A DNA stretch of 64,000 nucleotides, from NCBI RefSeq assembly GCF_001438845.1, contig NZ_JQCL01000103.1, forward strand, positions 62,001 through 126,000, written 5' to 3'. This stretch comes from Lactiplantibacillus xiangfangensis (GTDB lineage: Bacteria; Bacillota; Bacilli; Lactobacillales; Lactobacillaceae). The notes under the pieces were generated by a model. That model was not told the DNA's origin. It did no database searches and saw nothing but the letters and a program-made list of their open reading frames with translations. Shown here piece by piece: positions 4,800 to 37,805 of this stretch (its first letter is position 1; every line of letters starts with the position of its first letter). The translations under genes were made by a program, and so were the position numbers.

Positions 4800-4995
4800 G
4801 CTAAAGATTGAAAGTGCTAAAACTAGTTCAAGCGTTACCATAGCACTACTTATCATTAGAAAATTAGTATTTTTCGGCGCTTCGCTAGCAGAATCAGTGG
4901 GCTGGCGGCTTTGTAGTGAGGTTCCAGACCGTCCTTTGGCTGGGACCGCCCCCCATAGCACTCAAGGCTACCCGATGGAGCGGCTAATTTTAGGA
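4800..4995. repeat. Rearranged remnant of the double-cloverleaf repeat (between pgsA and cinA)
   Basis: The 485-base gap 4650-5134 has no convincing gene. Bases about 4800-4898 match, in inverted orientation, the 3' end and flank of the large repeat family: TTTTTCGGCGCTTCG followed by GCAGAATCAG. Bases about 4899-4995 match, in direct orientation, the 3' end of the 19-kb copy (GGGACCGCCCCCCATAGCAC, then CTACCCGATGGAGCG, CTAATTT). The element is therefore a fusion of two inverted end fragments with its interior lost. The 4800-4870 segment is shared with 24550-24616. Bases 4650-4799 and 4996-5089 show nothing I can name. Confidence 0.7.
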
Positions 4996-5089
4996 ATAAT
5001 AATTATTGCTGTTACAACGTTACCAGCCATTTTGGGACTTTCAATCTTTAGTTAACTGCACTACACCCTTCGTGTCATTTTTTTCTCGT

Positions 5090-6712: not shown

Positions 6713-8032
6713 CTAATTTTCAGATTTCTTTAACTCTTCTGGTTGAGGACGAATCTGATACTCACTAATCGCTTGCGACTTGAGTAGTTGTCCCGCAACG
6801 GCTTGTACGTCTGCCAAGGTTAACTGATTAATGACATCTGGTTCGTCAAATAAAGTTACCGAACCAAATAACTGTTGATCATAACGGTTGGCAATCGCTT
6901 CGAGTGAGTTCGCCATGAAGACGATCCGCCCAATCATTTCTTTTTTGACTAAGGCCAATAATTCAGACTGGTCGTCCACGGCGTCTTGCCAATGTTCAAT
7001 CACCTCAATAATTGCCGCGTCAAATTTGGCCGGATCATCACTTTCCCCACTAAACGTTAGGAAGTTGAAGCCGTTTTGTAATTCGAAGTCATAACCGAAC
7101 GTATCGTCAATGACCCCTTCGTCGTAAAGTCGCAAATAATTTTTGGACGTATCGCCAAACAACATTTCGAGTAAGACGTTTACAGCCGCACGGTATTTCA
7201 AAGCAGGCATCCCGGATTCAATCGGCGTTAGTCCCTTGACCCCGACGATGGATTTGGCCCGGTTCACTGGCATATCAATGACCCGGTAAGGAATAATATC
7301 ATGCCCATCTTCCGCCGTTGCTGGAATCTTACGTTCAATTGGTTTAAAGCTTGCAAACGTCTTATTGGCTTGGTTAGCTTCAATCCAGCCCAAAACTTCA
7401 TCTGGGTCCAGTTTACCAACCACAAATAAAGTCATGTTCTCTGGGTGATAGAACGTCTTATACGCCGCGTAAAGGTCCTCTGCGGTAATCTTAGCAATCG
7501 ACTGGGTCGTTCCCGCAATGTCATATTGCAACGGGTGGTTAGGATACAGGTTCCCAATCATCCCAAAGTACAACCGCCAGCTCGGATCATCGTCGTACAT
7601 TTCGATTTCCTGGCCAATGATTCCCTTTTCCTTGTCCACGGTCTGCGCCGTAAAATACGGGTCCTGAACAAAGTCGAGTAAGGTCTCTAGGTTTTCTTTC
7701 AGATTACGTGTTGCGGAGAACAAGTAACTCGTCTTCGTAAAACTCGTAAACGCGTTCGCGCTGGCGCCGTATTCACCAAACGTTTGAAAGGCATCGTGGT
7801 CCGCCTTCTCAAACATTTTATGTTCAAGAAAATGGGCAATGCCATCTGGGAAACGGTGTAGCTCGTCGCTACCGGCTGGTACAAACGTGTTGTCGATCGA
7901 CCCGTAGTTGGTTGTAAACGTTGCGTACGTTTTATGAAACCCAGCTTTGGGTAACATCGTCACCGTCAAACCGTTTGGGAGCTTAGTTTGATAGCAGGTC
8001 TCGTTAAATTGCTCATATTTTTTTACTTGCAT
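6713..8032 (-). CDS. M16-family zinc metallopeptidase-like protein YmfH
   Basis: The 439-residue product belongs to the insulinase/pitrilysin-like M16 family. The inverted zinc motif HFLEH is intact at 67-71, so this subunit should be the catalytic one. It overlaps the upstream ymfF frame by 10 bases, suggesting translational coupling. In M16B peptidases an active and an inactive subunit often pair as a heterodimer, which fits the YmfH/YmfF pair. The substrate is unknown; peptide processing or degradation is inferred. Confidence 0.9.
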   Translation of the reverse strand: MQVKKYEQFNETCYQTKLPNGLTVTMLPKAGFHKTYATFTTNYGSIDNTFVPAGSDELHRFPDGIAHFLEHKMFEKADHDAFQTFGEYGASANAFTSFTKTSYLFSATRNLKENLETLLDFVQDPYFTAQTVDKEKGIIGQEIEMYDDDPSWRLYFGMIGNLYPNHPLQYDIAGTTQSIAKITAEDLYAAYKTFYHPENMTLFVVGKLDPDEVLGWIEANQANKTFASFKPIERKIPATAEDGHDIIPYRVIDMPVNRAKSIVGVKGLTPIESGMPALKYRAAVNVLLEMLFGDTSKNYLRLYDEGVIDDTFGYDFELQNGFNFLTFSGESDDPAKFDAAIIEVIEHWQDAVDDQSELLALVKKEMIGRIVFMANSLEAIANRYDQQLFGSVTLFDEPDVINQLTLADVQAVAGQLLKSQAISEYQIRPQPEELKKSEN

Positions 8033-10917: not shown

Positions 10918-10942
10918 TTTAAGTCTAAAGGCTGGAAAGTCA

Positions 10943-11400
10943 TAGAAACTGATACCAATGTTAATACTAACAAAATCGATAAACTTGTCGCTTCCGGCCG
11001 CCCATGATTTCATCTGCTGCGGCGACCGGACTAAGCCTGAAAAGCGGTCTTAGTCCTCGCTTGCAAGCCGCAAAACCACGTCTCGCAAGACGTCGGTGGC
11101 GTAAACCGGAAGTACACCGGTCAACGCCACTTTCGCGGCAGATTCATCATGGTCAACCTCCAGCTAAAGCGATCATTCTCTCAAAATTGATTTAGCTTGC
11201 TTTTAACCAGTCCTAGCGCAGCCGGCAGAACCAGCGGGCCGTGTCGGCACTGTTAGCTGGCGTTGTTTGCCAGGTTACAGTGCGGGGCGACTTGAAAGAC
11301 TCGTTCTTTGAGGCTTTCAAGCGAGGCGGAAGACCGTTCTTTGTCTGCAGCCGACCCCATGGCCCACTGATTCTGCCGGCGAAGCGATGAAAAATCCTAT
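10943..11400. repeat. Double-cloverleaf repeat, copy A
   Basis: Full copy of a dispersed structured element, in the convergent gap between the kinase and transporter genes. Left domain: closing helix CCATGAT 11002-11008 / ATCATGG 11146-11152 and ATCTGCTGCG 11012-11021 / CGCGGCAGAT 11134-11143. Its arms are GGACTAAG / CTTAGTCC (11028-11056), CTTGCAAG / CTCGCAAG (11060-11089) and GTGGCGT / ACGCCAC (11096-11130). Right domain: closing helix GCCGGCAGAA 11221-11230 / TTCTGCCGGC 11371-11380. Its arms are GCACTGT / ACAGTGC (11247-11283), CTTGAAAG / CTTTCAAG (11291-11321) and AGAC / GTCT (11331-11346). A hairpin AGCTAA…TTAGCT lies between the domains. No protein is encoded. Identity unknown to me. 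Confidence 0.85.
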
Positions 11401-13751: not shown

Positions 13752-14005
13752 TAAAAAAATCGTCCTTAGGCCAACAGCCTAAGAGGACGATTTCATCGCG
13801 GTTCCACCTCATGTTCATCAGTGGCTCACACCACTGAACTCAACGAGTTTATCACTAAACTCCGCCGCTAACGAGGCCACCCGGGATAGCTTACTAACTT
13901 CAGCTACCCAACTCGCAGATGTGTTTCGTTTACGTTAAGGATCGTCTTTCCACCACCGACGACTCGCTGGACATCTCAACGTCAACTACTCTTCTGTTCT
14001 TTGTT
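13752..14005 (-). promoter_or_regulatory. T-box leader of the amino-acid transporter operon, probable His specifier
   Basis: This is a full T-box riboswitch on the minus strand. Stem I has lower helix CAGA/TCTG, the AGAGTA motif on the 5' side of the specifier loop, and GAAACACA on its 3' side. The apical loop is GGTGGTGGAAA. The antiterminator core AGGTGGAACCGCG lies at 13797-13809 and a strong terminator at 13752-13792. Aligning the loop with the Val and Met T-boxes in this window (codon, one purine, then lower helix) gives CAC, a His codon. Reading AAC (Asn) is the main alternative. Binding of uncharged tRNA should allow readthrough. Confidence 0.85.
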
Positions 14006-14021
14006 TTTTAATGTTGCTCTC

Positions 14022-19032: not shown

Positions 19033-19480
19033 AGCGTCACTGTACCAGTATTAATACTGATGAAAATCAATCACCTACTATTTAGTCCGGATGGCACTGA
19101 TAACATGCGGTCGTGGGACCGGGTTAAGCCTGAAAAGCGGTCTTAACCCTCGCCCGGAACAGTTGCAAAAACCGCAACTGTCCCGGACCGTCCGTGGTGT
19201 ACGGGCCGGAAATCCCACCGTCCCAACACCACCTTCACGACCGATGCTATCAGTGCCATCCTCCGAGTATTCCATAAATTGGGATCACACACCACGTTTA
19301 GCGAAGGCGGGTAGAATCGGTGTGCTGTGTCGGCAACAAGAGCCGGCGCCACTTGCCGACTCTTGTTGCGGGGCAATTCAAAGACGTGATTTATCGGCTT
19401 TGAATTGAGGACTCAGACCGCTCCTCGGCTGAGTCCGTCCCCCATAGCACACCGGTTCTACCCGACGAAGCGACTAATTT
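19033..19480. repeat. Double-cloverleaf repeat, copy C
   Basis: This is the most diverged full copy and the best test of the fold. Left closing helix: GGATGGCACTGAT 19089-19101 / ATCAGTGCCATCC 19249-19261 plus CGGTCGTG 19108-19115 / CACGACCG 19236-19243. Left arms: GGGTTAAG / CTTAACCC, CCGGAACAGTTGC / GCAACTGTCCCGG and GTGGTGT / ACACCAC. Right closing helix: CGGTGTG 19318-19324 / CACACCG 19448-19454 and GGGTAGAA / TTCTACCC. Right arms: GCAACAAGAG / CTCTTGTTGC, ATTCAAAG / CTTTGAAT and GACTCAG / CTGAGTC. Loops such as CCTGAAAAGCGGT match copy A exactly while the stems differ. The upstream flank has a palindrome CAGTATTAATACTG. Confidence 0.87.
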
Positions 19481-23611: not shown

Positions 23612-23866
23612 AAAAAAATCCATTCATCCTATAGACTAGGACGAATGGATTTCGCGGTACCACCTAATTTTAAAGCACGGTTAAAACCGGCTTTACAACT
23701 TAAACATAATTGTTAACGAACGGTGTATCCCGTCCGGCTACCCCTACTACTTTCAGGGCAACAGCTCGCAAGCTACCTTCACTTAAAACTGCCGAAAACT
23801 TCCAGTCCCGTTTTCTTCCTGTAGACAGTGGTCTAAGCTACTCTCTTGCTCATTGCTGGATGACAC
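23612..23866 (-). promoter_or_regulatory. T-box leader of valS (Val specifier GTA)
   Basis: On the minus strand Stem I has lower helix GCAAG/CTTGC, the AGAGTA motif, and the specifier codon GTA followed by G. The antiterminator core AGGTGGTACCGCG is at 23653-23665. The terminator at 23612-23652 has stem ATCCATTCATCCTA paired with TAGGACGAATGGAT and a T7 tract. The codon agrees with the gene it controls, so this leader calibrates the specifier-loop layout used for the other two T-boxes here. Confidence 0.95.
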
Positions 23867-24394: not shown

Positions 24395-24549
24395 AGCAAA
24401 CACCCCTTCGAAATCTTAATGTCGCAAACAAACTATTCAAACTAGTATGCTTTAAACTTACCGCAAACTAACCTAACTCGCAAATGTTAGCCTTAAAGTT
24501 TTTCGGGTTTCGTGGGTAAATAACTGAATACTAGTCTTTTTCAATCCAC

Positions 24550-24720
24550 TAAAGGTTGAAAGTAATAAAACTAGGTCACTTGTTGCCATCGCACTGCTTA
24601 TCGTTAAAAACTCAATATTTTTCGGCGCTTCGCCGGCAGAATTATTTTAAACAAACCGGTCAAGTTTGATATATAGCTGGAGGGCGCCACGACAGATGAA
24701 ATCACGAGCAACCGGAAGCA
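24550..24720 (-). repeat. Internally deleted remnant of the double-cloverleaf repeat
   Basis: Read on the minus strand, this segment keeps the 5' end (GCTTCCGG, GTGATTTCATCTGTCGTGGC), the linker CCTCCAGCT, and the 3' end ATTCTGCCGGCGAAGCG. The arm regions of both domains are gone. It keeps a 3' flank of about 65 bases that is shared with the remnant at 4800-4870. In the 557-base gap 24395-24951 I see no gene; 24721-24895 holds nothing I can name. Confidence 0.75.
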
Positions 24721-24895
24721 GGAAGCTTAATAATTTTATTAGTACCTTGCCCCACCAGACTGTAATGTAAGACTAATCAAAAAATACTATTGATTCCATC
24801 AACGATAATAGAATGAGTTATTGAATCAAGTTCATTTTAGCGAAAGCGGATCATATAGATACTTCAGCTTTTAGTGTCTTATTAAAGAACAACTA

Positions 24896-37355: not shown

Positions 37356-37805
37356 ATTAACTGATATAGCAACGTTAGGACCACTAAAATTATTAATTTT
37401 CCCGCTTCCGGCCGTCCGTGATTTCATCTGCCGTGGCGACCGGTTCATGCCAAAAAGCGGTCATGAACCTCACTTGAGAGCCGAAAAAACGTGTCTCTCA
37501 AGATGTCGGTGGCGTAAAATCGGGAAATCACCGATTAACGCCACCCTCACGGCAAATTCATCATGGACGACCTCCAGCTACGTTGAGGTTACTACCTTGT
37601 TTTTAAAAAAATCTCAGCGTAGCCGGCAAAACCAGTGGGCCGTGTCGGCACTGTTAGCTGGTGTTTTTTACCAGGTTACAGTGCGGGGCGACTTGAAAGA
37701 CTCGTCCTTTGAGGCTTTCAAGCGAGGTGGAAGACCGTTTCTTGTCTGTAGGCGACCCCATGGCCCACTGATTCTGCAGGCGAAGCGCTGAAAAATGCTA
37801 ATTTT
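37356..37805. repeat. Double-cloverleaf repeat, copy B
   Basis: Full copy between the 6S candidate and a small membrane gene. Left arms: GGTTCATG 37442-37449 / CATGAACC 37462-37469, TTGAGAG 37474-37480 / CTCTCAA 37495-37501, GGTGGCGT 37508-37515 / ACGCCACC 37538-37545 with inner ATCGG / CCGAT. Linker helix: CTACG / CGTAG and TGAG / CTCA. Right domain: GCCGGCA…TGCAGGC closing helix, then GCACTGT / ACAGTGC and CTTGAAAG / CTTTCAAG. Compared with copies A and C the stem bases change in pairs. The rest of the 878-base gap 37004-37881 is the 6S unit and short AT-rich spacers. Confidence 0.86.

What the first reader, a model, noticed from the sequence alone, without database searches (positions are those of the whole stretch)
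19033..19480. Dispersed double-cloverleaf element with compensatory base changes in nearly every helix
Three full copies (10943-11400, 19033-19480, 37356-37805) keep two consecutive four-way-junction domains although the stem sequences differ. Paired changes are seen in the first left arm (GGACTAAG/CTTAGTCC, GGTTCATG/CATGAACC, GGGTTAAG/CTTAACCC), the second (CTTGCAAG, TTGAGAG, CAGTTGC and partners), the third (GTGGCGT vs GTGGTGT) and its inner pairs (ACCGG vs ATCGG). They also occur in the right-domain arms (GCACTGT vs GCAACAAGAG; CTTGAAAG vs ATTCAAAG) and the closing helices. Loop bases such as AAAAGCGGT stay constant. Selection on the fold, as RNA or as single-stranded DNA, is the simplest reading. 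No protein is encoded and I do not recognise the family. It could be a large structured RNA or a non-autonomous mobile element whose hairpins are recognised by a transposase.
Basis: seen in the sequence. Interest (0 to 1): 0.9.

Follow-up and report, generated by a model that had tools for sequence, protein, structure and literature searches.

The report
Folded repeat riding an IS4 transposon
Scattered through this lactic-acid bacterium are small protein-less jumping elements that use the end sequences of a known type of insertion sequence and carry two copies of a large cloverleaf-shaped fold; the fold itself belongs to an apparently undescribed family of chromosomal repeats in related bacteria, and its function is not known.

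Summary
Each window copy carries two ~175-187-nt four-way-junction domains that are inverted homologues of each other, and their helices covary (two-sided changes in 46 of 56 pairs of R, 41 of 44 of L; 0 of 500 shuffles reach this). Outside the domains lie terminal inverted repeats CTAAAGRTTGAAAG. Of MITE-sized elements bounded by them and carrying the domain, 20 of 35 have 7-8-bp target duplications (mismatched flanks: 0.1%). The same ends bound a 1.55-1.57-kb coding IS, IS4 family, ISPepr1 subgroup, in other Lactobacillaceae (7 of 12 with such duplications). So this is a MITE-type element probably moved by an IS4-family transposase, which was not found in its own draft genome.

The cloverleaf is not in that IS. 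In Levilactobacillus it is dispersed as a bare ~190-nt unit, mostly without those ends, so it looks like an older structured repeat captured by IS4-type ends. Wobble tolerance marks one strand of each domain as the folded one; in a pair these strands run outward from the centre, so it is not one RNA through both domains. RNA or single-stranded DNA, and how bare units spread, are open. No Rfam match; no description found in my searches.

The parts
10925..10939 (+). copy A, degenerate left terminal inverted repeat (3 mismatches to TAAAGRTTGAAAG); no convincing right repeat found
   Evidence: the right-end candidate is the 3' end of the neighbouring gene, because the gap without the element in G017 also has it
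10988..11164 (+). copy A, L-type cloverleaf domain
   Evidence: 159.6 bits
11214..11388 (-). copy A, R-type cloverleaf domain (inverted homologue of L)
   Evidence: 116.5 bits
19081..19267 (+). copy B, L-type cloverleaf domain; no clear terminal repeats found around copy B
   Evidence: 149.2 bits
19299..19474 (-). copy B, R-type cloverleaf domain; the same gap in G012 holds an element in the opposite orientation
   Evidence: 133.8 bits
37326..37339 (+). copy C, left terminal inverted repeat (2 mismatches)
37402..37578 (+). copy C, L-type cloverleaf domain
   Evidence: 156.2 bits
37614..37789 (-). copy C, R-type cloverleaf domain
   Evidence: 101.8 bits
37807..37820 (-). copy C, right terminal inverted repeat (2 mismatches in the 13-nt pattern); no exact target duplication seen
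4801..5051 (.). remnant element with both terminal repeats intact and most of the interior deleted; 6-bp flanking repeat; a longer copy (about 617-619 bp) sits at the same site in G012
   Evidence: (4800-4984, 37 bits)
24549..24744 (.). probable remnant: one terminal repeat (24549) and a weak domain fragment (24676-24721, 20.3 bits); right edge approximate

Best explanation
A MITE-type element of Lactiplantibacillus (about 500-600 bp when complete): terminal inverted repeats CTAAAGRTTGAAAG, about 85-nt outer arms, and two inverted cloverleaf domains (L-type and R-type) with a short spacer. Shown: the ends and 7-8-bp target duplications match a coding IS4-family (ISPepr1 subgroup) IS of other Lactobacillaceae; the domains covary strongly; pairs on one defined strand tolerate G-U; the same domain is dispersed alone in Levilactobacillus, mostly without those ends. 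Inferred: an IS4-family transposase moved the element in trans by cut-and-paste; the cloverleaf is an older structured repeat family captured between IS4-type ends; the fold is kept because the folded strand, more likely RNA from read-through transcription than single-stranded DNA, is bound by a host or element protein at arms 1 and 2, which share a conserved unpaired A; ectopic gene conversion and recombination between the inverted domains homogenise, swap and invert copies.
For: Target duplications of 7 bp or more in 30 of 54 spans bounded by these repeats, 0.1% of mismatched flanks; without 3 spurious or double spans: MITE-size with the domain 20 of 35, without it 3 of 4, IS-size 7 of 12. 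Coding IS: 8 of 15 loci examined have both ends with zero mismatches, spans 1552-1567 bp; Pfam DDE domains; NCBIfam IS4 family, 470 bits against a cut-off of 250; YREK signature in 15 of 15 loci; ISPepr1 features from PMC2266710 (passages). No cloverleaf in the 11 IS loci scanned: no hit below E 0.1. Gaps without the element at orthologous sites A, B and C. Covariation. Strand asymmetry: G-T 114 v A-C 43 in R (37 v 7 columns), 86 v 53 in L (29 v 14) with G-U forbidden in the prediction; the folded strand is lower in energy in 30 of 31 Levilactobacillus units. Bare units with sharp ends.
Against: The own draft genome has no match to the transposase at E 1e-30, so activity is past or lost. 15 of 35 MITE-size elements with the domain show no duplication of 7 bp or more; window copies A and C show none and copy B has no recognisable ends. 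Beyond the terminal repeat I saw no likeness of the MITE to the IS, so it is not a simple internal-deletion derivative. The IS4 story does not explain the bare units. Related rows inflate the strand test, and the L result is modest (sign p 0.032). I hold no transcription data. Palindrome-restoring replication errors could create covariation without function. The 0.72 is for the mobile origin and the captured fold under constraint; RNA over DNA alone is about even.
Confidence: 0.72

Rival explanations
1. The fold acts as single-stranded DNA: the cloverleaf strand, exposed at replication or excision, is recognised by a recombinase or replication protein, as the hairpins of REP or IS200/IS605 elements are, and this spreads the bare ~190-nt units; the IS4-type ends are a later addition. 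(Compatible with the mobile part of the best explanation.)
For: Bare units with sharp ends in Levilactobacillus; conserved unpaired A in two arms and strand-specific wobble tolerance; convergent pairs resembling inverted REP pairs (32 of 35 close pairs among the 150 scored matches of the own genome; 103 of 122 distinct close neighbours over the loci then held).
Against: No Y1 transposase (PF01797) in the own genome, with the search ringing in 5 of 14 control genomes; no match in plasmids, phages or viral contigs at the sensitivity used (blastn; one exact pattern), where a freely mobile unit might be expected; G-T tolerance is expected for RNA too.
Confidence: 0.3
2. The palindromes are kept by a mutational process (template switching in imperfect palindromes plus ectopic gene conversion) and the fold has no function.
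For: Site A in G012 holds the other R-type sequence inside otherwise conserved flanks; one pair of orthologous Levilactobacillus units has quite different but self-complementary flanking arms; 19 of 31 units have copy-specific complementary flanks above the 95th percentile of mismatched flanks (26 of 76 in a wider set with 30-nt flanks).
Against: Invariant unpaired bases across L, R and several genera and strand-biased wobble tolerance are not expected from a symmetric repair process.
Confidence: 0.15
3. One large structured RNA (ROOL- or GOLLD-like) transcribed through both domains.
For: Size, junctions and z-score -12.7.
Against: No Rfam match at gathering score in the window and no credible one at E up to 1 in three loci; the two domains are inverted homologues whose folded strands point in opposite directions; single-domain copies with the same terminal repeats exist (L366); bare single units in other genera.
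Confidence: 0.04

Closest known systems
IS4 family, ISPepr1 subgroup (PMC2266710, passages)
   Same: terminal sequence, 7-8-bp target duplication, AT-rich targets; the coding relatives are 1.55-1.57 kb with the YREK signature
   Different: the element has no transposase and shares the terminal repeat only; its interior is two cloverleaf domains
Bacterial MITEs in general
   Same: short, non-coding, high copy, terminal repeats with target duplications, in intergenic gaps at the sites looked at
   Different: two large covarying domains that also occur elsewhere without the terminal repeats
REP/BIME repeats with RAYT transposases (PMC2817692 and PMC3733652 seen as search listings only; the rest recalled)
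   Same: more than 100 copies per genome, palindromic, pairs in alternating orientation
   Different: about 175-194 nt with three arms instead of 20-40 nt; no Y1 transposase in the own genome
ROOL, GOLLD and OLE large RNAs (PMC12286853, search listing only)
   Same: large multi-helix fold, non-coding; GOLLD is named after Lactobacillales among others
   Different: no Rfam match, mobile and multicopy, two inverted domains

Membership tests
MITE of the IS4 family, ISPepr1 subgroup | terminal repeats shared with a coding IS of the family | tested here: met
   identical CTAAAGRTTGAAAG ends; 8 of 15 IS loci with zero mismatches at both ends
MITE of the IS4 family, ISPepr1 subgroup | 7-8-bp target duplication (PMC2266710 Table 1) | tested here: met
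   7-8 bp exact in 20 of 35 MITE-size elements with the domain and 7 of 12 IS-size; 0.1% for mismatched flanks. Not seen at window copies A and C
MITE of the IS4 family, ISPepr1 subgroup | parent of 1500-1600 bp with the YREK signature | tested here: met
   1552-1567 bp, YREK in 15 of 15, NCBIfam IS4 470 bits
MITE of the IS4 family, ISPepr1 subgroup | ends YT-AA-YTT---A (PMC2266710 Table 1, 'mostly conserved') | tested here: inconclusive
   7 of 8 specified bases agree in CTAAAGGTTGAAA; all 8 agree in the relatives with CTGAAACTTGAAA ends (L393, L395, L398, L400)
MITE of the IS4 family, ISPepr1 subgroup | interior derived from the parent IS | tested here: not met
   no cloverleaf in 11 IS loci; so an element with IS4-type ends, not an internal-deletion derivative as far as the domains go
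MITE of the IS4 family, ISPepr1 subgroup | movement by the transposase in trans | not testable with these tools
   needs a mobility assay
REP/BIME with RAYT | Y1 transposase (PF01797) in the genome | tested here: not met
   0 matches in the own genome; not tested in other genomes
REP/BIME with RAYT | 20-40-nt repeat | tested here: not met
   unit is about 175-194 nt
Known RNA family in Rfam 15 | match at or above gathering score | tested here: not met
   only two T-boxes elsewhere in the window; five sub-threshold matches in L137 alone at E up to 1, none at gathering score

The most novel reading that the evidence does not exclude
The cloverleaf is a new class of chromosomal repeat that spreads by itself as a folded single strand (RNA or DNA) without terminal repeats. 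It inserts at, or creates, copy-specific palindromes: in Levilactobacillus 19 of 31 bare units sit between flanks that are inverted repeats of each other although different from copy to copy, and at one orthologous site two species have different but self-complementary arms around the same core. IS4-type ends captured a pair of these repeats to make the window's element.
Probability: 0.28. Interest if true: 0.88.

Novelty: new variant of a known kind. Interest (0 to 1): 0.7.

Why it matters
It ties a high-copy repeat of food bacteria to a named transposase family and shows that the repeat carries a large fold under strong, strand-specific constraint. The covariation is about as clear as one could ask of an uncharacterised bacterial structure. 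The family's function and the spread of its bare units are now directly testable in harmless laboratory strains.

Tried and rejected
An autonomous copy with the cloverleaves flanking a gene: two wide-spaced pairs (L191, L213) hold ordinary chromosomal genes (named by my reading of the translations). Terminal repeats without a listed domain, in 20 own-genome stretches, were remnants or chance-like hits (I did not call genes there, but the own genome has no match to the transposase). All 26 terminal repeats (up to 1 mismatch) in loci L119-L228 lie within 450 nt of a domain; those loci were chosen for holding the domain.

A Y1/RAYT parent: absent in the own genome. Plasmid, phage and viral homes: no match by blastn or by one exact pattern; a 77-nt outer-arm query against plasmids gave 24 records with short matches, best E 0.2, none covering 80% of it.

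Pre-existing palindromes as targets: gaps without the element at one Levilactobacillus site (L315-L317, L319, L325, L332) show by eye no palindrome like the flanks, but the intergenic DNA there is too diverged to decide.

A gene-orientation bias of bare units is weak: outer gene toward the unit in 24 of 35. Terminators pointing at the element were found by a crude scanner in 66 of 257 outer flanks against 24 pointing away; there was no random intergenic control, so a preference for sites behind terminators is suggested only.

My first strand count, read on the strand of the first alignment, had more A-C than G-T; this is what identified the reverse strand as the folded one. It was then repeated on chosen alignments with G-U forbidden.

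One search (23 of 41 and 7 of 13) held two spurious or double MITE-size spans and one spurious IS-size span; one search sorts them out.

Literature searches without a description of this repeat: (open-licence PMC papers only; seen as listings). PMC2267715 was looked at by one passage, which names Lactobacillus johnsonii as its Lactobacillus; PMC2266710 by passages.

Rows dropped: A2 used 37 of 39 chosen domains, A4 41 of 44, A5 44 of 49, leaving out short or poorly fitting rows; one search covered 60 of 68 held sources, leaving out overlapping ones. One search ended with an error in its last loop; its earlier numbers stand.

Full report
WHAT IS THERE. The region of copy B folds 12.7 standard deviations better than shuffles. 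No Rfam family matches. The left (L) and right (R) domains are inverted homologues of each other. The own genome has 48 blastn pieces and 150 covariance-model matches, which is all that were scored. Among these 150, 32 of 35 pairs of neighbours within 1.2 kb are convergent, and 26 of the 32 have spacers of 16-49 nt; 80 stood alone in that capped list. Over the loci then held, 103 of 122 distinct close neighbours are convergent, and 75 of the 103 pair an L-type with an R-type.

THE FOLD. Separate alignments of the strand now called F (the reverse of the strand on which the domains were first aligned) give a closing stem and three arms. R-type: 44 sequences, 56 pairs, 95.4% of cells paired, 46 pairs with changes on both sides, covariation score 0.433 against 0.167 shuffled. 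L-type: 41 sequences, 44 pairs, 93.0%, 41 pairs, 0.624 against 0.188. 0 of 500 shuffles reach any of the five measures, and slid structures fall to 29-47% paired. Several pairs use all four Watson-Crick types. Arms 1 and 2 share a conserved unpaired A beside a G-C pair on strand F, a bulge in arm 1 and a bulge or A-G mismatch in arm 2 (my reading of the alignments). Rows are related, so the shuffles overstate independence; two-sided changes at this density are still hard to get otherwise.

WHICH STRAND. With G-U forbidden in the prediction the same pairs come out from either strand. At these pairs G-T outnumbers A-C on F: R 114 v 43 (37 v 7 columns, sign p 5e-6), L 86 v 53 (29 v 14, p 0.032). 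Strand F folds on average 9-10 kcal/mol better in 164 L and 79 R sequences (better in about 91% and 94% of them) and better in 30 of 31 Levilactobacillus units. In a pair, F of L is the minus strand and F of R the plus strand: both run from the spacer outward. One RNA through both domains would need the opposite sign in one of them.

THE MOBILE ELEMENT. Outside each domain, about 85 nt away in complete copies, lies CTAAAGRTTGAAAG. In the own genome a 16-nt version (up to 2 mismatches) occurs 37 + 37 times against 4 + 3 for the reversed pattern. Of 54 spans bounded by it, 30 have exact 7-8-bp flanking repeats, against 0.1% for flanks of different elements. Sorted, and without 3 spurious or double spans: MITE-size with the domain 20 of 35, MITE-size without it 3 of 4, IS-size 7 of 12. 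Window copies A and C have degenerate ends and no exact duplication; copy B's ends are not recognisable. At orthologous gaps site C is 53-155 nt wide in G006, G017, G015, G013 and G008 against 618 here; in G006 sites A and B, and in G017 site A, show no blastn likeness to the element; the gaps are too diverged to read a duplication. In G012 site A is shared but carries the other R-type sequence, and site B holds an element in the opposite orientation, 75.7% identical against 89.8-92.7% in the flanks: gene conversion, inversion or replacement.

THE PARENT. A search of 397 family genomes for the end pattern found 26 genomes. Beside some matches is a DDE transposase. In 15 loci examined the IS spans 1552-1567 bp; 8 of 15 have both ends without a mismatch. 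The protein is IS4 family by NCBIfam (470 bits, cut-off 250), and 15 of 15 loci have Y-2-R-3-E-6-K. PMC2266710 (passages) gives for subgroup ISPepr1: 1500-1600 bp, ends YT-AA-YTT---A, YREK, 7-8-bp duplications, AT-rich targets. Ours fits except one of the 8 bases of the end consensus; the relatives L393, L395, L398 and L400 fit all 8. The transposase is found at E 1e-30 in 50 of 397 genomes, including Lactiplantibacillus G004 with an open frame, but not in the own genome. The IS has no cloverleaf (11 loci), and elements with the same ends but no cloverleaf exist (L352, L359, L130 7064-7315, L237 1178-1500). So the ends are borrowed.

THE DOMAIN ELSEWHERE. With the covariance model, 27 of 151 family genomes (9 of 40 genera) have it, at most 17 candidates scored in each. 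Several Companilactobacillus copies have the IS4-type ends. In Levilactobacillus the repeat is mostly the bare unit with sharp ends (matches recur at the same ~182-193 nt). G035 has none of the end pattern; other Levilactobacillus genomes have a few (up to 7), and in L354-L356 such ends lie near a domain. Nothing was found in plasmids, phages or viral contigs at the sensitivity used.

UNEXPLAINED. In 19 of 31 Levilactobacillus units the left and right 45-nt flanks are inverted repeats of each other above the 95th percentile of mismatched flanks; in a wider set 26 of 76 with 30-nt flanks, while flanks of different copies are hardly more alike than shuffled ones (mean scores 12.5-12.7 against 11.8). 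At one orthologous locus G035 and G171 have quite different arms around the second unit, yet each pairs with itself. Insertion into hairpins, fold-back synthesis, nested replacement and rapid paired evolution all remain possible.

JUDGEMENT. What it works like and is: a MITE moved by an IS4-family (ISPepr1) transposase, supported by ends, duplications and a coding relative; movement itself was not observed. What is not settled is the passenger: a structured, strand-specific repeat family that I could not match to anything described. RNA is my first choice, single-stranded DNA a close second.

Noticed in passing
window 13780-14010(-) and 23634-23862(-): Two T-box leaders above Rfam's gathering score.
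   Followed up: no
window 4801-5051; L235 269-887: Internal deletion in the window copy: both terminal repeats are kept while a 617-619-bp copy sits at the same site in G012. L245 and L247 show extreme remnants of only about 30-40 bp between two terminal repeats.
   Followed up: partly
L352 1298-1521 and L359 1226-1521: Short elements with the same IS4-type ends and target duplications but no cloverleaf: other passengers of the same ends.
   Followed up: no
genome G354: 186 matches (88 + 98) to the end pattern in one genome of the family, a very large expansion; the 5 transposase matches listed there each cover only part of the protein (4 of 18 candidates scored).
   Followed up: no
L266 and L311: Orthologous bare units in two Levilactobacillus genomes with different but self-complementary flanking arms.
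   Followed up: partly
L277, query positions 7844-8031: A second unit subtype (starting CGCCTTACCGGG) lies next to the main type in Levilactobacillus intergenic regions, and the arrays differ between the close genomes G035 and G171.
   Followed up: no
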